Shown piece after piece: positions 2,814-11,039 of a stretch of 20,088 nucleotides of DNA. Location of the stretch: IMG/VR virus record IMGVR_UViG_3300048031_000032, positions 1 through 20,088 of that record, one strand, 5' to 3'. The translations under genes and the position numbers were made by a program. How positions within the stretch are numbered: the first letter of the stretch is position 1; each line of letters starts with the position of its first letter. This DNA comes from a virus. The notes under the pieces are model-generated. The model saw nothing but the letters and a program-made list of their open reading frames with translations. It made no database searches and had not been told where the DNA came from.

Positions 2814-3113
2814 TTACGCTCCTGATTTCGGATATTTATTTTTAGTAGCTGTTCTTTTAGCTTGTAATTCTGTAAGCGTATCACCACCATCTAATAGTGC
2901 GTGGATACAATCGTCTATTGTTGGGTATTCTGCTTGTCTATTTCTTTTCCATTCTTCAGCATCATACTCTGCTTGTAGTTCTGTCATCTTAGCTTCTATG
3001 TCAGCTACTGGTATAGGTGTTGTTCCATTGTGCCATTCAATAGTATTTATATTTTCGCCATGAACAGAAAACTCTGCTGTTGGATTTATTTTTAAAATTG
3101 CTTTATCTATCAT
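2814..3113 (-). CDS. XkdW-like small tail protein, possible fibre chaperone
   Basis: A 99-aa acidic/helical protein. Residues 35-65 (PVADIEAKMTELQAEYDAEE, then KRNRQAEYPTIDD) resemble the short XkdW-type proteins found in phage tail regions, where a PxxDIxAKxxELQ helix is followed by an R-x-x-E-Y-P segment and a C-terminal KYPK. No enzyme motif is visible. Four small genes of this general style are interspersed among the fibre genes here, which suggests a role in fibre folding or attachment, but this is inference only. Start supported by AGGATAATTT before ATG. Nearest neighbours are the repeat-built fibre downstream and a jelly-roll-type fibre upstream. Confidence 0.65.
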   Translation of the reverse strand: MIDKAILKINPTAEFSVHGENINTIEWHNGTTPIPVADIEAKMTELQAEYDAEEWKRNRQAEYPTIDDCIHALLDGGDTLTELQAKRTATKNKYPKSGA

Positions 3114-3116
3114 AAA

Positions 3117-3662
3117 TTATCCTGCTATTTCGTATGCTGTTAATGTTGAAATTCCTCTAGCTATATAAGAACCAGCATGGTCTTCATGTGGTCTATTAAT
3201 ATATAAAGATTGTGCATTACCATAATGCAACCCAGCTTGAATTTTATATGTAGTTGCTGAAGTAGTATTTGGAGAATCTAGAAAACTAGCTGATGAATTA
3301 TGCATTACATAACCATCACCATCTGCACTATGATTTCTCATAGAGGAAATTGTTAATCTTGCTCTACTACCATCTGCATCACCAATACCAATATCAGTTG
3401 AACCTCTAACAAATTTAACACCCATATATCTTTCCGAACCATCAATATTAATATTAAGAACTAAAAATATTTTATTTGAAGTTGATGATGGAGTTATAGA
3501 TAAACTCAAACCAGATACATCAACAAAAGTAGCAGTAGATGTAGATTGCGTATCTGTTTTAGTTGCAGATACAACTTGCAAAACCTTACCTTGTCCAGGT
3601 GCAACACTTGTTGGTATCGTCCCTGTAATTGCATTCGCTCCGCCTAATCTTGTTATCGCCAT
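3117..3662 (-). CDS. short tail fibre / virion protein of the ITGTIPTS...SITPSSTSNK type
   Basis: A 181-aa beta-rich protein recognisable as a widespread phage fibre-like family: N-terminal MAITRLGGANAITGTIPTS, then QVVSATKTDT (about 29-38), VSGLSLSITPSSTSNKI (about 49-65), a strand with VRGSTDIGIGD (about 84-94), the conserved FLDSPNTTSATTYKIQ (about 127-142) and a terminal LTAYEIAG. The fold is probably a trimeric jelly-roll head with a short N-terminal anchor, like the C1q-like neighbours but with different motifs. It is inferred to be one of several alternative or co-assembled tail tip proteins. Start supported by AGGATAAATT upstream. No membrane segment or catalytic motif seen. Confidence 0.7.
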   Translation of the reverse strand: MAITRLGGANAITGTIPTSVAPGQGKVLQVVSATKTDTQSTSTATFVDVSGLSLSITPSSTSNKIFLVLNINIDGSERYMGVKFVRGSTDIGIGDADGSRARLTISSMRNHSADGDGYVMHNSSASFLDSPNTTSATTYKIQAGLHYGNAQSLYINRPHEDHAGSYIARGISTLTAYEIAG

Positions 3663-3665
3663 AAT

Positions 3666-3944
3666 TTATCCTATCAACGCTTTAATTTCGTCGTCGTCCA
3701 ATCCTAAATCTTTTAGCTTCTGTTTACCAGAGGCTTTTTTATCTATTGCTGCTTGTTCAGCGTCTTTTAATTCTTGTATCTTTGCATTTACTTCAGCTTC
3801 AGTAGGTTTTGTAATTGAACTGTCATGTACAATAATATTTTCGTAAGACATTCTATGTTCACCAGTCCAGTCTTTTTTCCAACCAAACCATTGACCTGTG
3901 TGCATTTGTGCTAAAGCTGTATTTAACCATTCTTGTTCTGTCAT
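3666..3944 (-). CDS. XkdW-like small tail protein, possible fibre chaperone
   Basis: A 92-aa protein. The N-terminal half carries a WFGWKKDWTGEHRMSYENI segment, followed by a helix KPTEAEVNAKIQELKDAEQ (about 46-64) and a C-terminal KLKDLGLDDDEIKALIG, an ending shared by many small phage proteins from tail-fibre loci (XkdW-like). The helix is similar in style to those of the 99-aa and 116-aa proteins in the same module. No catalytic residues are evident. It lies between two jelly-roll-type fibres and has a good ribosome-binding site (AGGAGAATT before ATG). A chaperone or connector role is plausible but unproven. Confidence 0.65.
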   Translation of the reverse strand: MTEQEWLNTALAQMHTGQWFGWKKDWTGEHRMSYENIIVHDSSITKPTEAEVNAKIQELKDAEQAAIDKKASGKQKLKDLGLDDDEIKALIG

Positions 3945-3951
3945 AATTCTC

Positions 3952-4524
3952 CTATGTATCTGTCAATCTAATAAAACGCATTGCTGTTAAGTCGTAATTT
4001 GTATTTCCCATAGTTTCAGTATTTACATCATGAAGACCTACACGAAATTTAATTTTTTGATTTGATGTATCTGTTATATCTAATAATTGATCTGTAGAAG
4101 AAATTGCATAAGTTTCAGCACCACCTGTTTGTGTAATAAATGTAGAACCTTCAGATAAAGTAGAATAAGAAGAATTATTTGTTGTTCCCATTATTAATGC
4201 TGAACAAAATCTACTACCTGAATTTAATTTAAAAGAAACTGTAAAACTTACATAATAAATACCTGTTGATGGAAACGAAAATATTCCTGAAGATTCTGTC
4301 ATTTGTGAACCAAGATAACTTAAAGATGGAGCAGTATCATTTCGTTCTAAATTTGAAGCTATTGGATTAGCTTCACCAGTAAAACCTGTAGTTAATCTCC
4401 ATTGGTCTGCCATTGTAATTCCAGTATTAGGTAGGCTACTAGTAAATGTACCAGAACCATTTGAGGTAATAATTGCATTGCCTCCTGAATCTTTAAGCTG
4501 GTCTACTTTTAAAATGCTACTCAT
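3952..4524 (-). CDS. short tail fibre protein, C1q-like/jelly-roll head, type B anchor
   Basis: A 190-aa protein. The first 30 residues (MSSILKVDQLKDSGGNAII and TSNGSGTFT) match the anchor of the 179-aa fibre at 7760-8299 (MASIIKANQLQDFGGNSII), showing a shared N-terminal module. The C-terminal part has the pattern of a C1q/TNF-like domain: SGIFSFPSTGIYYVSFTVSF (about 81-100) and an ending LTAMRFIRLTD. It lacks the PAF linker that marks five of its relatives and has a different central domain, with MADQWRLTTGF after the anchor. Inferred to form trimers at the tail tip. Ribosome-binding site GGAG lies before the ATG and overlaps the end of the upstream gene. Stop is TAG. Confidence 0.68.
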   Translation of the reverse strand: MSSILKVDQLKDSGGNAIITSNGSGTFTSSLPNTGITMADQWRLTTGFTGEANPIASNLERNDTAPSLSYLGSQMTESSGIFSFPSTGIYYVSFTVSFKLNSGSRFCSALIMGTTNNSSYSTLSEGSTFITQTGGAETYAISSTDQLLDITDTSNQKIKFRVGLHDVNTETMGNTNYDLTAMRFIRLTDT

Positions 4525-4525
4525 A

Positions 4526-5032
4526 TTATGCTCCTAACCTATATCCGTAAAAAAATGCTTGTGTATTAGTACTTGTTAAATTTAAAGAACCAGCACCAGA
4601 TTCTTGTCTTACATAAATACTTACAGTATCAGTAGTTCCATTACAATCTACAATGGCTTGAGCTGAAAGTTTTGAATAGTGTTCATTTGGAGATACAACA
4701 TAACAAACAGTGCTAGAATTTTTATAAATATACATTTGACTACTTTGAAAATCAGTAGATGTTTCGTATCTAACCATGGAGTAAATGTAATATTTACCTG
4801 CTTTATTTGGAGTAAAAGTATATGCACTTGTATCATAACAACTATCTGTATCAAATACTTCTGAATTAAATTGTACTAAAGTTGTTGTATCTTGTGCTAT
4901 AGCTTGTGTAGCACTTACTGTTGCATGAAAAGCTGGTGTGCTAGACAACAACGTAACACCTGATCCAATAGTAATGTTACCAGATCCTGCGCTGTTTGTT
5001 ATTGTTCCTACTTTTAAAGTTCCGTCTGCCAT
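4526..5032 (-). CDS. short tail fibre protein with C1q-like head
   Basis: A 168-aa paralogue of the C1q-like fibres. Anchor residues 1-31 (GTLKVGTITNSAGSGNITIG) are followed by the linker STPAFHA (PAF at 33-35), then the head: FDTDSCYDTSAYTFTPNKAG and KYYIYSMVRYE, MYIYKNSS, VDCNGTTDTVSIYVRQ and the final YGYRLGA. The FTPxxAGKYY-x-Y, YKN and G-Y/A-YR-x-G motifs are the shared signature of the family. C1q-like jelly rolls usually trimerise and act as recognition heads; here a receptor-binding role is inferred. The start has no clear Shine-Dalgarno sequence and is 4 nt from the preceding stop, so translational coupling is likely. Confidence 0.72.
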   Translation of the reverse strand: MADGTLKVGTITNSAGSGNITIGSGVTLLSSTPAFHATVSATQAIAQDTTTLVQFNSEVFDTDSCYDTSAYTFTPNKAGKYYIYSMVRYETSTDFQSSQMYIYKNSSTVCYVVSPNEHYSKLSAQAIVDCNGTTDTVSIYVRQESGAGSLNLTSTNTQAFFYGYRLGA

Positions 5033-5036
5033 AATA

Positions 5037-5603
5037 TTATTCTATAATTTTAAAACCTTGCATTCTTGTTCCACCAATTTTGATACTTGAACTACTACCA
5101 TTTGCAGAATTAGCTGCAAAACCTTCTATGTAATCATCTGTATCTAAATCTACCAATACAGTTGTAGATACTCCTGCACCTCTACCTGGATTACCTCTAA
5201 AATCTACTCTACCATCACTACCACTTATTTGAGATCCATTTTTATAAATTTTTGCAGTAATAATTTGAACTTCTCCATTACCTGTGCTTTCTACAAATAC
5301 ATTTAAAGTTATAAAATATTTACCAGCCACAGCTGGTGTAAATTTATTACTTGCAAAAGTACCATTAGTATCAACATCCTCTGTATCAAAAGTTATTTTT
5401 GTATTTGTTTCAGAATTATCTAAACTTTGGTCTCCAGACTTTCTAACAGAAAAAGCTGGAGTGTTAGTTCCACCAAATCCTGTAGCCGTACCAGAGTTTG
5501 CAATAGTTACTCCTGATGGAATTGTTATTGTATCTCCTGATGTACCTAGCGTTAGCGTAGTACCTGTAGCTGGATCGACTTGATTTGTTTCTAGTTTACT
5601 CAT
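5037..5603 (-). CDS. short tail fibre protein with C1q-like head
   Basis: A 188-aa paralogue. The type A anchor is very clear (residues 4-33: LETNQVDPATGTTLTLGTSG then DTITIPSGVT), like the 183- and 185-aa paralogues. A Gly-rich stretch leads to the linker NTPAFSVR (PAF at 49-51). The head has NTKITFDTE, FTPAVAGKYFITLNVFVE and a KIYKNGSQISG strand, then LDTDDYIEGFAANS and a diverged ending GFKIIE instead of FGAYRIG. The TKITFDTE block is shared with the 179-aa paralogue. Its ATG overlaps the stop of the 152-aa gene (TAATG), so it is probably translated by re-initiation. Confidence 0.72.
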   Translation of the reverse strand: MSKLETNQVDPATGTTLTLGTSGDTITIPSGVTIANSGTATGFGGTNTPAFSVRKSGDQSLDNSETNTKITFDTEDVDTNGTFASNKFTPAVAGKYFITLNVFVESTGNGEVQIITAKIYKNGSQISGSDGRVDFRGNPGRGAGVSTTVLVDLDTDDYIEGFAANSANGSSSSIKIGGTRMQGFKIIE

Positions 5604-6061
5604 TATAAAATTACGAATGTACTCCCTGATGGTATAGTCACTGTACCACTAACTGTAACGGGTCCAACTAACGCTCCGTTGTTTGAACCTGCCATTGATA
5701 TACTTGTGAACGTTTGACTATTTTTCATAAAAAATGTTGATGCTAAACTTCCTGCTGTCACTGTTGAATCTGTTGGAGTTCCAATATCAAATACATCACC
5801 TAATACTGTTCCGAAAAAAGTATCTGAACTAGCAGGATTTGATGTGAAAGTAATCTGACTTCCCGATATTGTAAATGCTGATTGTGGCTCTTGGATAACT
5901 CCTGATACAGAGATTATACAATTAGCTTCGTTTCCAGGAGACACAGCGGTGCCGTTCACCGTTAAGTTAAACGGTCCTGGTGTTGATCCGGTGAATGACC
6001 CTGATATGTCATCCAGTATTTGATACGCTCCTGTTTGAGGAGCTTTTCCAACGTAAGCCAA
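5603..6061 (-). CDS. tail fibre protein of the MAY-G-AP family, TTG start
   Basis: A 152-aa protein. The N-terminus MAYVGKAPQTG matches that of the 147-aa gene at 9412-9855 (MAYLGNAPKQ) and of many phage fibres. Residues 26-90 form a typical fibre beta-domain (FNLTVNGTAVSPGNEANCII, then SVSGVIQEPQSAFTISGSQI and a FFGTVLGD strand). The C-terminus ISMAGSNNGALVGPVTVSG followed by TVTIPSGSTFVIL is a well known phage fibre end. The start codon is TTG, not ATG: it sits 8 nt after AAGGAG, there is no in-frame ATG nearby, and the family N-terminus begins exactly here. A weak start may set the dose of this protein below its neighbours, which is inference. Confidence 0.75.
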   Translation of the reverse strand: MAYVGKAPQTGAYQILDDISGSFTGSTPGPFNLTVNGTAVSPGNEANCIISVSGVIQEPQSAFTISGSQITFTSNPASSDTFFGTVLGDVFDIGTPTDSTVTAGSLASTFFMKNSQTFTSISMAGSNNGALVGPVTVSGTVTIPSGSTFVIL

Positions 6062-6073
6062 TTGTTAATCTCC

Positions 6074-6424
6074 TTATTCAGTTGGGATCGGGTTTGCAGT
6101 CTTGACAGCTTCTACATGGTCTTTCCATGTAGTAGTACCATCTTTAGAATCGTGGTACTGCATGTCGAGCTGTGAACCTAGATCACCGTAGGCGTTTCTT
6201 CTTGTAGCTCTAACTGCATTTTGTCTCTCTTCAAGATCTGCAGCAGAATCTACAGCGTTCAGTTGCTCATCAGTCGGTTTTGCTAATCCAGAAATATTCC
6301 ATTCCTTGATGTAGGGCCCCTGACCGTTTGAGTCGTCCTGAAGCAAAACGTCAGTCATAAAGTCAACAGAAGCGACACCATTATCTGATGCGTACTGTTT
6401 GATTTTGCTTGAAAGTGATGCCAT
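6074..6424 (-). CDS. small tail-module protein, XkdW-like, possible fibre assembly factor
   Basis: A 116-aa hydrophilic, largely helical protein. The segment LAKPTDEQLNAVDSAADLEE (about 47-66) and the C-terminal RRNAYGDLGSQLDMQYHD, then DGTTTWKDHVEAVKTANPIP, resemble small phage proteins that accompany tail-fibre genes; the R-x-x-AYG-x-L-x-xQLDM-x-YHD block is especially recognisable. No enzyme motif or membrane segment is visible. A strong ribosome-binding site (AAAGGAGAAAAACT before ATG) marks the start. It follows a 57-aa gene of the same general class and precedes the MAY-G-AP fibre. Role as a chaperone or baseplate/fibre connector is inferred from position only. Confidence 0.65.
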   Translation of the reverse strand: MASLSSKIKQYASDNGVASVDFMTDVLLQDDSNGQGPYIKEWNISGLAKPTDEQLNAVDSAADLEERQNAVRATRRNAYGDLGSQLDMQYHDSKDGTTTWKDHVEAVKTANPIPTE

Positions 6425-6627: not shown

Positions 6628-7749
6628 TTATAACTCCGAACTAAATGCTATACATGGTTTCATTCCATTTGTTTCAGCAAATGCTTGAAATGGTGTTCCA
6701 GTTTGACCACCAGTATTTCCACTAAAACCTCCAAGTCTTACATAAACTGCATCTGTATTTTGTAAATATGATGCAGCAATTGTTGCTGAAGTTGTAGTCC
6801 TTGTAAAAACTCCCCAACCTGCTATTGATAAACTTGTTGTTAATAAAGAAGCTGATGGATTTGCTCTTTTTCTTTCTCTAAAATTAAAGCTAGTCCAAAA
6901 AGATGATGAATCATTAGCTTGTGCAAATGAAGCAACACCAAGTTCTTCATAGTATCTTAAACATCTTCTTAAATTCACATCAACAGGCAAGAACTCAAAA
7001 TCAGATGCAGTTGTTCCAGCTTCTAATTGTACGCCTGTAATATACCATTCGTTATCTGTGCTATCTGCAAGGTTGACTTGACCTACTGCTCTATTTGCGG
7101 CTGTGATTGTACCCCAAGAAGTCTGTAAAGTTCCAGATGAAAAATCACTTCCAGCTACTAACCAATGTATAAGTCTTAAACTATCTCCATTATCATTAGT
7201 AAATGCACCAGATGTATCTCCAGCATAAGTAATTGTTTTCTTTTCCCAAGTATCTGCTGATGAAATAGTGTATGATTTTGATATTGTTCTTGAATTATCT
7301 TGGTCTCTTAATTCAGCTATATAAGTTCCAGTTTTATTAGATTTAACCCAAAAAGATAGAGTTGTACTCTCTGCACTTGATGTACCTTTTTTTAAATACT
7401 GTAAGTTTTGACCTTCTATTTTTTGTTCAATAAATAAACCTTCATCTGATGATGGAGAAGTTCTAGCAGTAGTACAATCTAATTTTAAAGAATTAGCAAA
7501 ACCTTGACTACTAGGCACATCAGTAGATTGTGATTGTGTCCAAGTTCCAACATCTCCACCAGAAAAAGTTTGTTTAAATCTATCTAATGAACGATAGCCA
7601 GAACTATTAACACCACTAACAGAAGTCGCTCTTTGTGCTATGCTCATGTCACCATTGATGATGATGTTTCTGAAGTTGACATTATTATCAAGTTTCGATT
7701 GAGGTACATCCTCGATCATGTTTGTTGTATCTATTCTACTTAATGCCAT
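6628..7749 (-). CDS. tail fibre protein with carbohydrate-binding-type jelly-roll domain
   Basis: A 373-aa protein and the largest fibre here. It shows the ordered motifs of a common phage fibre family: NIIINGDMSIAQR (28-40), DRF (56-58), IEQKIEGQ (107-114), SFWVKSNKTGTY (132-143), TWEKKTITYAGDT (167-179), ITGVQLEAG (237-245) and RRCLRYYEEL (261-270). Residues 30-250 are expected to be a carbohydrate-binding-module-like beta-sandwich; the last 100 residues (270-373) form a distal domain that is usually variable. A role in binding host surface glycans is inferred. Ribosome-binding site AGGAAG precedes the ATG. It separates the upstream trio of C1q-like fibres from the downstream fibres. Confidence 0.82.
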   Translation of the reverse strand: MALSRIDTTNMIEDVPQSKLDNNVNFRNIIINGDMSIAQRATSVSGVNSSGYRSLDRFKQTFSGGDVGTWTQSQSTDVPSSQGFANSLKLDCTTARTSPSSDEGLFIEQKIEGQNLQYLKKGTSSAESTTLSFWVKSNKTGTYIAELRDQDNSRTISKSYTISSADTWEKKTITYAGDTSGAFTNDNGDSLRLIHWLVAGSDFSSGTLQTSWGTITAANRAVGQVNLADSTDNEWYITGVQLEAGTTASDFEFLPVDVNLRRCLRYYEELGVASFAQANDSSSFWTSFNFRERKRANPSASLLTTSLSIAGWGVFTRTTTSATIAASYLQNTDAVYVRLGGFSGNTGGQTGTPFQAFAETNGMKPCIAFSSEL

Positions 7750-7759
7750 AATTAACTTC

Positions 7760-8299
7760 CTATGTTATAATTCTGTATGCTCCAAATGTTGAAGCCTTTT
7801 GATTTGCAGCTAAACCATTAATTTTTCTTGTTCCATCACTATTGTTAATTTTTGCATATACTTCAATATAATCATCTGCATCTAAATCAAATACCTCATG
7901 ATATGAAATAAGACTATGTTTTGCACTAGGTTGTGTAAAAAAAACACTATCTTGACTTCCATTTTTAAAAATTTTAACCATATGTTCATCAGTAGTTCCA
8001 ACATTACTATCTTCAAATTCTAATCTTCCATATACAAAATATTTTCCAGCTATTGCTGGAGTAAAACGACCATTACTATTATTATAAGTTCCATCGCTAT
8101 CGTAAATTTCTGTATCAAAAGTAATTTTTGTATCAGTATCATTTGACAATTGACTTGTATCAGAACTTAAAAATGCTTCAAAAGCTGGAGTGTTTTTAAT
8201 TCCACTTGCATTAGGAGTCACATTACCCGCACCATCAGACGTGATAATGCTGTTACCGCCAAAGTCCTGTAGTTGATTTGCTTTTATAATTGATGCCAT
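7760..8299 (-). CDS. short tail fibre protein with C1q-like head, type B anchor
   Basis: A 179-aa paralogue. The anchor (MASIIKANQLQDFGGNSII, residues 1-19) is the same type as that of the 190-aa fibre at 3952-4524, whereas its head is closest to the 188-aa and 185-aa proteins: linker NTPAFEAF (PAF at 38-40), TDTKITFDTEIYDSDGTY, RFTPAIAGKYFVYGRLEFED, KIFKNGSQ, LDADDYIEVYAKI and a final FGAYRIIT. This anchor/head combination is a clear sign of module shuffling. A 15-bp DNA stretch over the PAFEA linker is identical to the next two upstream paralogues. It starts 2 nt after the stop of the 183-aa gene without a strong ribosome-binding site. Confidence 0.78.
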   Translation of the reverse strand: MASIIKANQLQDFGGNSIITSDGAGNVTPNASGIKNTPAFEAFLSSDTSQLSNDTDTKITFDTEIYDSDGTYNNSNGRFTPAIAGKYFVYGRLEFEDSNVGTTDEHMVKIFKNGSQDSVFFTQPSAKHSLISYHEVFDLDADDYIEVYAKINNSDGTRKINGLAANQKASTFGAYRIIT

Positions 8300-8300
8300 G

Positions 8301-8329
8301 ATTATGATCCTATCCTGTATGCACCGAAA
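8301..8329. repeat. 29-bp direct repeat, copy 1 (C-terminal junction)
   Basis: Identical to 8852-8880. It covers the stop codon and the codons for the conserved FGAYRIG ending of the 183-aa fibre. Confidence 0.85.
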
Positions 8330-8853
8330 ACTCCAACTGCCGAACCAATTTCAAAAACAGGTACGCCACTAATTACATTACCTCTAGCATAAAGTTCTAC
8401 ATAATCTGAACTCCCATTAAAATCTATCGTTGATGCTAAAAATATAGATACTTCATTTGGTGGAGAAGCTGTTCCAAAGTTTTGAGGTGTGTGTTTATAT
8501 TCCGACCCATTTTTATAAATGGCTAAGTTAGGAATTTGTAATTGATAATTTGTATTACTGTACATAGCAACATGACCATAAACATAATATTTTCCAGATA
8601 CTGTTGGAGTAAATCTATATGTAGATGTATTGTACATAGAATTTGTATCTAAAATTTCTGTGTTCATATTTAATTTAGTCCAAGTATTATCTGATGCTGT
8701 TTGGTCACTACTTCCATACGCTTCAAAAGCTGGATAGTTTAAATTACTTTGAACAACACCTGAACCTAGAGTAAACGTATCCCCAGAACTACCCAGGGTT
8801 ACTGTGCCGTTGTCCGCGATTGGTTCTATATTTGTTGTTTTAATTGTTCCCAT
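8302..8853 (-). CDS. short tail fibre protein with C1q-like head, type A anchor
   Basis: A 183-aa paralogue, tandem to the 185-aa gene. Anchor: GTIKTTNIEPIADNGTVTLG, then SSGDTFTLGSGVV; linker VQSNLNYPAFEAY (PAF at 41-43); head: NTEILDTNSMYNTSTYRFTP, VSGKYYVYGHVAMY, IYKNGSEY, DFNGSSDYVELYARG, and FGAYRIGS at the end. The linker DNA and the C-terminal/stop region are identical to the 185-aa gene over 45 and 29 bp, while the head between them has diverged strongly. Its ATG overlaps the upstream stop (TAATG). C1q-like heads normally form trimers; receptor recognition is inferred. Confidence 0.8.
   Translation of the reverse strand: MGTIKTTNIEPIADNGTVTLGSSGDTFTLGSGVVQSNLNYPAFEAYGSSDQTASDNTWTKLNMNTEILDTNSMYNTSTYRFTPTVSGKYYVYGHVAMYSNTNYQLQIPNLAIYKNGSEYKHTPQNFGTASPPNEVSIFLASTIDFNGSSDYVELYARGNVISGVPVFEIGSAVGVFGAYRIGS
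8720..8764. repeat. 45-bp direct repeat, copy 1 (anchor-head linker)
   Basis: Identical to 9280-9324. It codes for the VVQSNLNYPAFEA linker between anchor and C1q-like head of the 183-aa fibre. The first 15 bp are also found in the 179-aa fibre near 8183. Confidence 0.88.
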
Positions 8854-8880
8854 TATGATCCTATCCTGTATGCACCGAAA
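8852..8880. repeat. 29-bp direct repeat, copy 2 (C-terminal junction)
   Basis: Identical to 8301-8329. It covers the stop and FGAYRIG codons of the 185-aa fibre and the first bases of the 183-aa start. Distance between copies is 551 bp, about one gene. Confidence 0.85.
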
Positions 8881-9410
8881 GTGGTTGTTCTTAAACTAGA
8901 ATCACCAAAAACTAATGGAGTGCCACCTGAAACTAATACGTTGATAAAAAATTCAACATAGTCTGATGAACCATTCATATCAACTACTCCAGATACAAAA
9001 GGTGTAAAAAAATTTGCTGGGTTTGAAATATTTGCATATTGAGGTGAGCTCATAAGTTCAGCACCATTTTTATACATAATAGAAATAACTCTCATAACGT
9101 CATTATTTCCATCACAATCTCCTCTACCTTTTGCATAAACATAATATTTACCTGCTTTGTTTGGAGTAAAACGATAATTTGTAGAATTATCATAGCAACT
9201 ATCAGAGTCAAAAATTTCTGTGTTCGCTTGAACTTTTGTGTTTACATTACTAGATAAATTTACTGAAGCATTAGCAAAAGCTTCAAAAGCTGGATAGTTT
9301 AAATTACTTTGAACAACACCTGAAGTTAAAGCAACAGTATCTCCTGAAGAACCTATTGTTAAACTTGTTCCTGATTGTGGGTCTATTTTATCTACAAATA
9401 ATGTTGCCAT
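8853..9410 (-). CDS. short tail fibre protein with C1q-like head, type A anchor
   Basis: A 185-aa protein, first of the tandem C1q-like set in transcription order. Anchor: MATLFVDKIDPQSGTSLTIG, then SSGDTVALTSGVV; linker NLNYPAFEAF (PAF at 40-42); head: TEIFDSDSCYDNSTNYRFTP, NKAGKYYVYAKGRGD, MYKNGAEL, VDMNGSSDYVEFFINV, and TTFGAYRIGS as the end. The anchor is typical of pelagiphage-like fibres and probably docks into the tail; the jelly-roll head is expected to be distal. The stop overlaps the start of the 183-aa paralogue. The start has no clear Shine-Dalgarno sequence and lies 1 nt after the preceding stop codon, so coupling is likely. Confidence 0.8.
   Translation of the reverse strand: MATLFVDKIDPQSGTSLTIGSSGDTVALTSGVVQSNLNYPAFEAFANASVNLSSNVNTKVQANTEIFDSDSCYDNSTNYRFTPNKAGKYYVYAKGRGDCDGNNDVMRVISIMYKNGAELMSSPQYANISNPANFFTPFVSGVVDMNGSSDYVEFFINVLVSGGTPLVFGDSSLRTTTFGAYRIGS
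9280..9324. repeat. 45-bp direct repeat, copy 2 (anchor-head linker)
   Basis: Identical to 8720-8764, 560 bp away, coding for the same linker in the 185-aa fibre. Flanking sequence on both sides is clearly diverged. Confidence 0.88.
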
Positions 9411-9411
9411 A

Positions 9412-9855
9412 TTATACTACCGTTAATGTCCCGTTTACTGTGACTGTTGCTGTAAATGATACTGGACCACATAACATCATGTTGTCCGTTGCAGCAACTG
9501 TAATTGTTTCTGAAACTGTTGCTAAATTTTTATATCCACCGTTGATTGCAGAAATCATTCCTGCTTGAATACTGTTTTGACCGGGGTTAATACTACCCGT
9601 AGATTTACCTTGGAACACTACATAGATGTTTGCTGTTCCTGATGGTGGGGCTTCTGTGAAAGCTAAAGTTGTACCACCTGATATTGAGTAAGCGGAAAAC
9701 GGATCTTGTCTCACGTTTCCAACATATACTTCTGCTTCTGCAGTATTTGAAACACTTTGACTTAATGTAAAATTGACCGTGGATCCATCACCATTGAACT
9801 GTTGAGAGTTCATGGTATTTAAATTTTGTTTTGGAGCGTTTCCTAAATAAGCCAT
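9412..9855 (-). CDS. tail fibre protein of the MAY-G-AP family
   Basis: A 147-aa protein. N-terminus MAYLGNAPKQNLNTM, then a common fibre beta-domain (QQFNGDGSTVNFTLSQSVSN at 18-37; AEVYVGNVRQDPFSAYSISG at 41-60; a VVF strand near 79-81), a short linker INPGQNSIQAGMISAINGG and a C-terminal strand pair ending GPVSFTATVTVNGTLTVV. The whole layout parallels the 152-aa gene at 5603-6061, so the two are paralogues. The role is inferred to be tail fibre or fibre adaptor. A strong ribosome-binding site (AGGAGGAATC before ATG) supports the start. Confidence 0.77.
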   Translation of the reverse strand: MAYLGNAPKQNLNTMNSQQFNGDGSTVNFTLSQSVSNTAEAEVYVGNVRQDPFSAYSISGGTTLAFTEAPPSGTANIYVVFQGKSTGSINPGQNSIQAGMISAINGGYKNLATVSETITVAATDNMMLCGPVSFTATVTVNGTLTVV

Positions 9856-9863
9856 GATTCCTC

Positions 9864-10196
9864 CTACGTACTTATATCATCTACAGCGCCAACGACAGTA
9901 TCTAAAGAAGAAGCTGTATCTGATTTAACAAATAGCTGATCTCCTGAAGCAAGTACTATCTTCGAGCCTCCATCAATAAGTTCTAATGATCCGCCACTTA
10001 CAACTGGCGCATTTTTAATTAAATAATAATTTGCTGACGATCTTCTAATGTAAGCTTCAACATTAATTGTTGAAGTAGTAACGTTAGCCATTCTAACACT
10101 AATTAAAGTATCAAAACTATTTGCAGCACCACCTAAAGCATCAACTGCTGAAGTTCCTGTTTCTCTTGTTAGATAATTTCTAAAGTTTTGTGCCAT
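9864..10196 (-). CDS. conserved small virion/tail protein
   Basis: A 110-aa beta-rich protein. It resembles a structural family common in cyanophages and pelagiphages, with an N-terminal NFRNYLTRETGTSAV, a central strand in which a Thr/Ser-Ile-Asn-Val motif (TINVEAYI) occurs, then LIKNAPVVSGGSLELIDGG and KIVLASGDQLFVKSDTA at the end. Members usually lie with neck or tail genes; exact location in the virion is not known to me. No catalytic features. Start supported by AAGGAATAAATT before ATG. Ends in TAG. Confidence 0.68.
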   Translation of the reverse strand: MAQNFRNYLTRETGTSAVDALGGAANSFDTLISVRMANVTTSTINVEAYIRRSSANYYLIKNAPVVSGGSLELIDGGSKIVLASGDQLFVKSDTASSLDTVVGAVDDIST

Positions 10197-10211
10197 AATT
10201 TATTCCTTATA

Positions 10212-10589
10212 CTATAATGCAATCGACATAGCAATGACGAATCCGTTACTTGGTACCCCATCAACAACACCTGAAGCGTCTTTATAAACTGCTTTACTAG
10301 CAGGTAAAGTACAAAATACATCTTTTGTGCCTGCTGAAAAGTTAACAGCGCTATCTGAGTTAGATGAAGAAATAATAGTTGTTCTAGCTAATGTTCCAGC
10401 CGCAACGGTCCCAAGACCAACTTCAAACTCTGCTCCACCTTGTAAAGATATTGCATAGTAAGTCGTATTACCATTTCCAATAGCAGAAGAAAAAGTTTCA
10501 AAACCAGTTACAGCTCCAGCCAAAGTGAATGTGCCGGTACCAGTAGTCGTACTTGTTTCTTTTACTCTGTCATTTACTACTAACGCCAT
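10212..10589 (-). CDS. conserved virion protein of the NDRVKET family
   Basis: A 125-aa protein from a very widespread phage structural family, recognised by VNDRVKETSTTTGTGT (5-20), GNTTYYAISLQGGAEFEVGL (39-58), SSSNSDSAVNFSAGTKDVF (74-92) and the terminal SNGFVIAMSIAL. It is beta-rich and found near tail or fibre genes of many phages; its precise virion role is not established as far as I know. It lies between two other conserved small virion genes and is preceded by AAGGAATACAA before ATG. Confidence 0.75.
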   Translation of the reverse strand: MALVVNDRVKETSTTTGTGTFTLAGAVTGFETFSSAIGNGNTTYYAISLQGGAEFEVGLGTVAAGTLARTTIISSSNSDSAVNFSAGTKDVFCTLPASKAVYKDASGVVDGVPSNGFVIAMSIAL

Positions 10590-10607
10590 TTGTATTCCTT
10601 ATAAATA

Positions 10608-11039
10608 TTACGCGTCGCCAAGTCTAATGATTGCACTAGATGAATTAGCAGTTGGAAACTGAACAACGAAATCACCGTTAGTTGCAGTTTTTGATCCACC
10701 GAAGTCTAAAACTAATACAGCTTCATTACTTGTACCTTTATAAATCAGTGCCCCTACTGCTGTTAACGTTACAGAACTAAAAGTAGAATCTGCAAAATCA
10801 ACGTACGCAATATTACTTGCTACTGCTACACCGTTGTTAGTTAAAGTATTTCCACCTGCAGTATAGTTTGTACCAGATGAAGAAACTTCATTAGTAGTTG
10901 TATAAGCAGTTGTTGAAGTACTAAAACCACCTATAGATGTATAAAGCGCTAGTTTAAAAGTTGATCCACCAGATGAATCAAAATCAAACACGCCACCAAG
11001 TAGGTCTGTTTTAAAAGAGTCAGGTACTATATTTGCCAT
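10608..11039 (-). CDS. conserved phage structural protein (FKLALYTS family)
   Basis: A 143-aa protein with the motifs of a common phage structural family: DSFKTDLLGGVFDF (7-20), FKLALYTS (28-35), TAYTTTNEVSSSGTNYTAGG (44-63), an LTNNGVAV strand, GALIYKGTSNEAVLVLDFGG (95-114) and QFPTANSSSAIIRLGDA at the C-terminus. The protein is beta-rich with no enzyme motif; relatives are encoded near tail genes. Strong ribosome-binding site AAGGAGACAATTAA before ATG. It is the first gene after the neck block and may be a tail component, but the exact position is unknown. Confidence 0.75.
   Translation of the reverse strand: MANIVPDSFKTDLLGGVFDFDSSGGSTFKLALYTSIGGFSTSTTAYTTTNEVSSSGTNYTAGGNTLTNNGVAVASNIAYVDFADSTFSSVTLTAVGALIYKGTSNEAVLVLDFGGSKTATNGDFVVQFPTANSSSAIIRLGDA

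What the first reader, a model, noticed from the sequence alone, without database searches (positions are those of the whole stretch)
8301..9324. Identical 45-bp and 29-bp repeats bracket the variable heads of adjacent fibre genes
The 183- and 185-aa fibres share identical DNA at the anchor-head linker (8720-8764 and 9280-9324) and at the C-terminal/stop junction (8301-8329 and 8852-8880), while the heads between are strongly diverged. This arrangement would allow head-cassette exchange, deletion or duplication by homologous recombination, a diversification mechanism without a reverse transcriptase.
Basis: partly seen in the sequence, partly recalled or inferred. Interest (0 to 1): 0.72.

Follow-up and report, generated by a model that had tools for sequence, protein, structure and literature searches.

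The report
Swappable fibre-head cassettes in ocean phage
A marine, SAR11-type phage carries a row of small tail-fibre genes whose fixed bases act as sockets and whose receptor-binding heads are swapped as whole cassettes between related phages and between sockets; the two repeats lie at the edges of those cassettes and show where the swapping happens.

Summary
Relatives show head exchange. Where the neighbouring gene is at least 95% identical, slot-specific N-termini are 93-97% identical at DNA level, but heads only about 60%, as between distant phages. L011 matches the window at 99-100% over most of 3.7 kb upstream, yet all three compared heads differ. L003 and L058 differ in one head between near-identical neighbours. 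The same head occurs in different slots (18 pairs, up to 98% identity), and in cultured phage HTVC115P.

The proposed mechanism needs changing. Slot order is intact in 47 of 47 loci, so repeat-driven deletion or duplication is not seen. Within-genome S1-S2 linker matches are usually 9 bp; the window is an outlier. The 29-bp core (AGGATAGGA) looks like the next gene's ribosome-binding site. The 45-bp linker is a shared cassette edge: across slots, codons at identical residues match 81% there, 41% upstream and 62% in heads.

Best reading: a fixed-socket array with heads drawn from a community-wide pool by recombination between phages; a new variant of known receptor-binding-domain exchange, recombinase unknown.

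The parts
9412..9855 (-). Anchor gene A, 147 aa, remote match to the T7 tail-fibre N-terminal domain; conserved left edge of the array
   Evidence: PF03906 E=0.011 (below Pfam cut-off), phrog_18673 tail fiber protein 6e-10; 133 viral contigs encode a relative
8853..9410 (-). Slot S1 fibre gene, 185 aa
   Evidence: ORF; N-terminus MATLFVDK conserved, heads variable
9325..9410 (-). S1 slot-specific N-terminal socket sequence upstream of the linker
   Evidence: Median 93% DNA identity over first 60 nt among close relatives
9280..9324 (-). 45-bp repeat, copy in S1: linker plus first head strand (SGVVQSNLNYPAFEA)
   Evidence: Exact repeat; cross-slot codon identity 81%
8881..9279 (-). S1 variable head between the repeats (C1q-like jelly roll by homology)
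   Evidence: 59% identical to the S2 head; relative of this head in L141 on another linker
8852..8880 (-). 29-bp repeat, copy at S1 end: last head strand FGAYRIGS, stop, likely Shine-Dalgarno of S2
   Evidence: Exact repeat; AGGATAGGA conserved in 90 of 99 RIG-ended genes
8302..8853 (-). Slot S2 fibre gene, 183 aa
   Evidence: ORF; AlphaFold2 mean pLDDT 91, C1q fold
8765..8853 (-). S2 slot-specific N-terminal socket sequence
   Evidence: Median 97% DNA identity over first 60 nt among close relatives
8720..8764 (-). 45-bp repeat, copy in S2
   Evidence: Exact repeat
8330..8719 (-). S2 variable head
   Evidence: Predicted strands 42-182; best head relative 61% aa identity
8301..8329 (-). 29-bp repeat, copy at S2 end, with likely Shine-Dalgarno of S3
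   Evidence: Exact repeat
7760..8299 (-). Slot S3 fibre gene, 179 aa, C1q
   Evidence: PF00386 E=5e-11, over cut-off; same variable-head pattern
6628..7749 (-). Slot S4 fibre gene, 373 aa
   Evidence: phrog_4492 tail fiber protein 1e-56; N-terminus MALSRIDT
6074..6424 (-). XkdW-like gene between the two arrays
   Evidence: PF09636 E=8e-12
5603..6061 (-). Second anchor gene, head of the second array
   Evidence: phrog_18673 tail fiber protein 2e-54
5037..5603 (-). Slot S5 fibre gene (second array)
   Evidence: Weak C1q match, phrog_15750 1e-5; an S5 head in L051 is 85-88% identical to S1 heads of L034 and L067
4526..5032 (-). Slot S6 fibre gene (second array)
   Evidence: PF00386 E=3e-5, over cut-off; S6 head in L147 97% identical to S1 head of L012
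3952..4524 (-). Slot S7 fibre gene
   Evidence: N-terminus MSSILKVD shared with relatives; followed by a small gene
3666..3944 (-). Small partner gene after S7, possible fibre chaperone (inferred)
   Evidence: Non-C1q heads are followed by such an ORF; no significant Pfam or PHROGs match
3117..3662 (-). Slot S8 fibre gene
   Evidence: N-terminus MAITRLGG shared with relatives; followed by small gene
2814..3113 (-). Small partner gene after S8
   Evidence: phrog_9114 3e-28, unknown function

Best explanation
The region is an array of small tail-fibre genes. Each gene has a short slot-specific N-terminus (inferred to dock the fibre at a fixed place on the tail) and an exchangeable receptor-binding head, usually a C1q-like jelly roll. 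The exchange unit runs from the linker in front of the first head strand to the end of the gene, with the embedded ribosome-binding site of the next gene. Phages infecting the same cell swap heads slot for slot by recombination in the conserved N-terminal DNA on both sides, and sometimes move a head to another slot, or to the second array, through shared linker and tail DNA. The window's 45-bp and 29-bp repeats are the edges of two cassettes of the same edge type in neighbouring slots; the linker in S1 was probably acquired from an S2-type gene. Shown: decoupled heads and sockets, the same head in different slots, edges at linker and gene end, excess synonymous conservation of the linker. Inferred: co-infection as the setting, homologous or annealing recombination as the chemistry, docking by the N-terminus, receptor binding by the heads.
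For: Heads about 60% identical whether the neighbouring anchor gene is 96% or 74% identical, while N-termini are 93-97% among close relatives. Identity profile falls from 0.99 at the S2 and S3 start codons to about 0.3-0.4 within 15-45 nt upstream and within about 135 nt downstream. Window against L011: upstream flank 99-100% over most 250-nt blocks, three different heads. L003 against L058: only the S2 head replaced between near-identical S1 and S3 (S1 and S3 head identities 100% and 99.7%). 18 cross-slot pairs with the same head, up to 98%, covering linker or head start to gene end. Cultured HTVC115P gp58, in slot S6, shares 83% of 415 nt with S1 heads of L003 and L017. L141 carries a relative of the window's S1 head with a different linker; identity begins at TATCCAGCTTTTGAAGC, the 3' part of the 45-bp repeat. 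Cross-slot codon identity: N-terminus 250/607, linker 455/559, head 1433/2326. Non-C1q heads carry a partner gene with them while C1q heads do not.
Against: No recombinase identified: RecT, ERF and resolvase families absent in nine related, possibly incomplete records. Closest relatives are metagenomic contigs, whose assembly can break or join at conserved blocks. No exchange has been watched happening, and no receptor is known. The cross-slot break in the N-terminal half is partly forced, because N-termini are slot-specific by definition.
Confidence: 0.82

Rival explanations
1. Within one phage, recombination between the 45-bp and 29-bp repeats deletes, duplicates or swaps heads of neighbouring slots; this is the main source of diversity.
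For: The window has long S1-S2 repeats at both edges, and S1 and S2 share the rarer GTT codon in the linker. Tails of adjacent slots are slightly more alike within a genome than between genomes even within clades (P=0.005 and 0.012).
Against: 47 of 47 loci keep A-S1-S2-S3-S4. Median within-genome linker match is 9 bp, and the linker excess vanishes when clades are held apart (P=0.41, 0.15, 0.83). Most head replacements bring in a head not seen elsewhere in the same array.
Confidence: 0.08
2. The repeats reflect constraint only: the linker and last strand are needed for the fold, and the tail for translating the next gene. No DNA exchange is implied.
For: The tail core AGGATAGGA looks like a Shine-Dalgarno and uses a rare arginine codon in 90 of 99 genes. 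Both repeats encode edge strands of the jelly roll.
Against: Linker codons are matched across slots far more than N-terminal or head codons. Whole heads with up to 98% identity sit in different slots.
Confidence: 0.06
3. The head and socket mosaics are assembly artefacts: short reads joined wrongly at conserved N-termini and gene ends.
For: Nearly all relatives are metagenomic contigs, and breakpoints lie at conserved blocks where assemblers can err.
Against: The same arrays recur in contigs from different metagenomes (L012-L015, L023 and L024, L025 and L026). Cultured HTVC115P has the same architecture and shares a head across slots. The reading frame is intact at every junction used.
Confidence: 0.03
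4. Heads diversify in place by fast point mutation or by a diversity-generating retroelement.
For: Heads are hypervariable; C1q heads of pelagiphages under-recruit in metaviromes (PMC3909814).
Against: Heads differ throughout, framework included, at about 60% identity between phages with near-identical flanks; no reverse transcriptase found; identical heads in distant backgrounds.
Confidence: 0.01

Closest known systems
Branched tail-spike complex of Ackermannviridae phages (PMC11414711)
   Same: Several tandem receptor-binding genes, conserved slot-specific 5' ends, exchange of the receptor-binding part by homologous recombination; recombination between neighbouring tsp genes was seen when a fifth gene was added.
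   Different: There: large tail spikes, and deletion of tsp3 occurred in the engineered phage. Here: up to eight small genes in two arrays, sockets of about 30-40 residues, C1q-like heads, edges with an embedded ribosome-binding site, heads shared between many slots and both arrays, and no slot loss among 47 loci.
Metaviromic islands with C1q-domain proteins in pelagiphages (PMC3909814)
   Same: C1q-domain genes of pelagiphages whose N-terminal part recruits reads while the head does not; proposed host-recognition role.
   Different: That paper describes the variability; a search of its text finds no mention of recombination, and no slots, cassettes or movement between slots are described in the passages read.
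Tail-fibre adhesin exchange at conserved motifs in T-even and P2-like phages (from own knowledge, not tested here)
   Same: Short conserved blocks serve as recombination points around variable receptor-binding segments.
   Different: Those are one or two fibre genes; here an ordered multi-slot array shares one head pool.

Membership tests
C1q-like (PF00386) head domain | Match to the C1q profile over its cut-off | tested here: inconclusive
   S3 and S6 pass the cut-off; S1 gives no C1q match and S2, S5, S7 are below it
C1q-like (PF00386) head domain | C1q/TNF jelly-roll fold | tested here: met
   S2 model mean pLDDT 91; best PDB match C1QL3 4qqo, E=1.4e-8, TM-score 0.82 on the target. S1 was in the alignment but not folded
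Receptor-binding-domain exchange by homologous recombination | Conserved N-terminal part with unrelated distal parts in close relatives | tested here: met
Receptor-binding-domain exchange by homologous recombination | Same distal part found behind different N-terminal parts | tested here: met
   18 cross-slot pairs; HTVC115P
Receptor-binding-domain exchange by homologous recombination | Recombination observed and host specificity changed | not testable with these tools
   Needs co-infection or engineering experiments
Diversity-generating retroelement | Reverse transcriptase near template and variable repeats | tested here: not met
   No RVT_1 in nine related records, control positive; records may be incomplete and the window is a fragment
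Invertible fibre segment (Gin/Cin type) | Inverted repeats and a serine recombinase | tested here: not met
   No inverted repeats in 7000-11000; no resolvase in nine related records
Pelagiphage (HTVC027P/HTVC023P-like) lineage | Related structural genes | tested here: inconclusive
   Capsid region 76% identical to HTVC027P over 11% of the window, other pieces to HTVC023P; host not shown

The most novel reading that the evidence does not exclude
A community-wide pool of heads with a common edge grammar: linker and first strand at one end, last strand plus ribosome-binding site at the other. Any head can plug into any of about eight sockets in two arrays, so each virion shows its own combination, and DNA at the edges is kept similar partly because it enables exchange.
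Probability: 0.3. Interest if true: 0.78.

Novelty: new variant of a known kind. Interest (0 to 1): 0.62.

Why it matters
SAR11 phages are among the most abundant viruses in the sea, and how they keep up with varied hosts is open. This locus turns a known hypervariable island into an ordered system with defined sockets, defined cassette edges and a traceable head pool, so exchange rates, slot preferences and links between heads and hosts can be measured from long-read data and isolates.

Tried and rejected
Exact 45-mer scan of viral contigs: no match, so the full repeat is private to this record. Deletion or duplication variants: none in 47 loci. General within-genome homogenisation of linkers: an apparent excess (P=0.003 with the window, 0.04 without) vanished when permuted within clades. 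Reverse transcriptase, RecT, ERF and resolvase searches were negative. HTVC027P gp26 looks like an endonuclease VII relative and gp27 an exonuclease; gp26 gave no match in nine relatives, a search without a positive control. An S2 head search found only distant relatives. Promoter-like hits in the region are at the shuffled level. Scripts or calls that failed for technical reasons: 21, 49, 50, part of 76, 78.

Full report
The observation. Both repeats exist exactly as described and end where stated. They lie in two adjacent minus-strand genes, here called slot S1 (8853-9410) and S2 (8302-8853). The DNA between the repeats is 59% identical, close to the 53% of shuffled sequence, and the N-terminal DNA is 61% identical. 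Where the two proteins agree, codons agree at 42 of 64 positions outside and 22 of 23 inside the repeats.

What the genes are. The window has its best matches to phages of Pelagibacter, notably HTVC027P and HTVC023P, at about 76-78% over parts of it. S3 and S6 match the Pfam C1q domain above the cut-off, the others weakly. An AlphaFold2 model of S2 from an alignment of 57 window and relative proteins has mean pLDDT 91. Residues 1-41 have no assigned strands, strands run from 42 to 182, and the best solved structures are C1q domains. The 45-bp repeat ends in the first strand (PAFEA), and the 29-bp repeat holds the last strand (FGAYRIGS).

The array. Upstream lies anchor gene A (9412-9855), with remote similarity to the T7 tail-fibre N-terminal domain. 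Downstream come S3 (7760-8299), S4 (6628-7749), an XkdW-like gene, a second anchor (5603-6061) and slots S5-S8, the last two each with a small partner gene. Searches of viral contigs brought in over 200 loci. In them each slot has its own conserved N-terminus (MATLFVDK or similar for S1, MGTIKTTN for S2, MASIIKAN for S3, MALSRIDT for S4). All 47 distinct loci that span A to S4 have the order A-S1-S2-S3-S4.

Heads are decoupled from sockets. For pairs of contigs with anchor gene identity of at least 95%, the first 60 nt of S1, S2 and S3 have median identities of 0.93, 0.97 and 0.95, and the heads 0.60, 0.62 and 0.61. For pairs with anchor identity below 80% the head medians are 0.60, 0.60 and 0.61. 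Identity aligned on the S2 and S3 start codons is 0.99 at the codon, 0.3-0.4 within 15-45 nt upstream, and falls to about 0.4 by 135 nt downstream.

Three natural experiments. The window and L011 are 99-100% identical over most of 3.7 kb upstream, with all three compared heads different. L003 and L058 have identical S1 heads and 99.7% identical S3 heads, but different S2 heads; the change starts near codon 25 and ends at YRIGT, stop and ribosome-binding site. L141 carries a relative of the window's S1 head (79% of amino acids) in S1, but on another linker; identity begins at TATCCAGCTTTTGAAGC, inside the 45-bp repeat. Because the QSNL linker is rare in S1 genes of this type (2 of 46) and commoner in S2 genes (12 of 49), the window's S1 linker probably came from an S2-type gene.

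Heads move between slots. An all-against-all comparison of unique slot genes found 18 cross-slot pairs sharing a head over at least 300 nt at 78-98%, among them S1-S2, S1-S5, S1-S6, S3-S6, S2-S3, S4-S5 and S4-S7. Aligned examples show identity from the linker to the stop codon, with slot-specific DNA on either side. The cultured phage HTVC115P has the second array (gp60-gp57), and its gp58 in slot S6 shares 83% of 415 nt with S1 heads of L003 and L017. Heads ending in RLGD or MEI-type motifs are mostly followed by a small partner gene (33 of 36 with an identified next gene), against 1 of 183 for C1q-type ends; this suggests two-gene cassettes. The motif classes are rough, and many genes fell into an unclassified group.

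What the repeats mean. The suggested synonymous test was run on 15 genes with the same linker, leaving out pairs with the same head: across slots, codons at identical residues agree at 41% in the N-terminus, 81% in the linker and 62% in the head. Linker DNA is therefore shared across slots. The 29-bp repeat is different: AGGATAGGA occurs in 90 of 99 genes ending in RIG, although AGG is 3 of 133 arginine codons in the window, so a ribosome-binding function explains much of it. Long repeats within one genome are not the rule: the median S1-S2 linker match is 9 bp, and the window is the maximum. Within-clade permutation removes the linker excess and leaves a small tail excess for adjacent slots.

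Mechanism. The simplest account is exchange between phages in one cell, with the conserved N-termini of a slot and of the next slot as homology arms, and occasional transfer between slots through shared linker and tail. The enzyme is unknown: RecT, ERF and resolvase were not found in nine related records, nor a reverse transcriptase, but these records may be incomplete.

Comparison with what is known. Hypervariable C1q proteins in pelagiphages were described as metaviromic islands (PMC3909814). Exchange of receptor-binding parts among tandem genes with conserved 5' ends is known from Ackermannviridae (PMC11414711). What appears to be added here is the ordered multi-slot array, the head pool shared across slots and arrays, and the two edge sequences. 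Only open-access papers could be searched.

Limits. Nearly all relatives are metagenomic contigs. Numbers of exchange events are lower than numbers of pairs, since pairs are not independent. Contigs were found by searches for these genes, so loci lacking them could be missed.

Noticed in passing
2814-6061: A second array with its own anchor gene (5603-6061) and slots S5-S8; heads are shared between the two arrays in relatives.
   Followed up: partly
3666-3944 and 2814-3113: Small genes that follow non-C1q heads in many relatives, in several slots; possible fibre chaperones moving with their head as two-gene cassettes.
   Followed up: partly
8305-8316 and 8856-8867: The rare arginine codon AGG is kept at the end of RIG-ended fibre genes, apparently because AGGATAGGA serves as the next gene's ribosome-binding site.
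   Followed up: partly
L269 1893-3941 (HTVC115P gp57-gp60): A cultured pelagiphage carries the second-array architecture under hypothetical-protein annotations; gp58 has a head found in slot S1 of metagenomic relatives.
   Followed up: partly
L005 4363-5289: An S1 gene of 308 aa ending in ENNGNN instead of a usual head end, overlapping the S2 start.
   Followed up: no
1-474: Weak match to a 2OG-Fe(II) oxygenase family (PF13759, below cut-off) at the window's edge.
   Followed up: no
487-1425: Glycine-rich protein (PF21722, just below cut-off) downstream of the fibre arrays.
   Followed up: no
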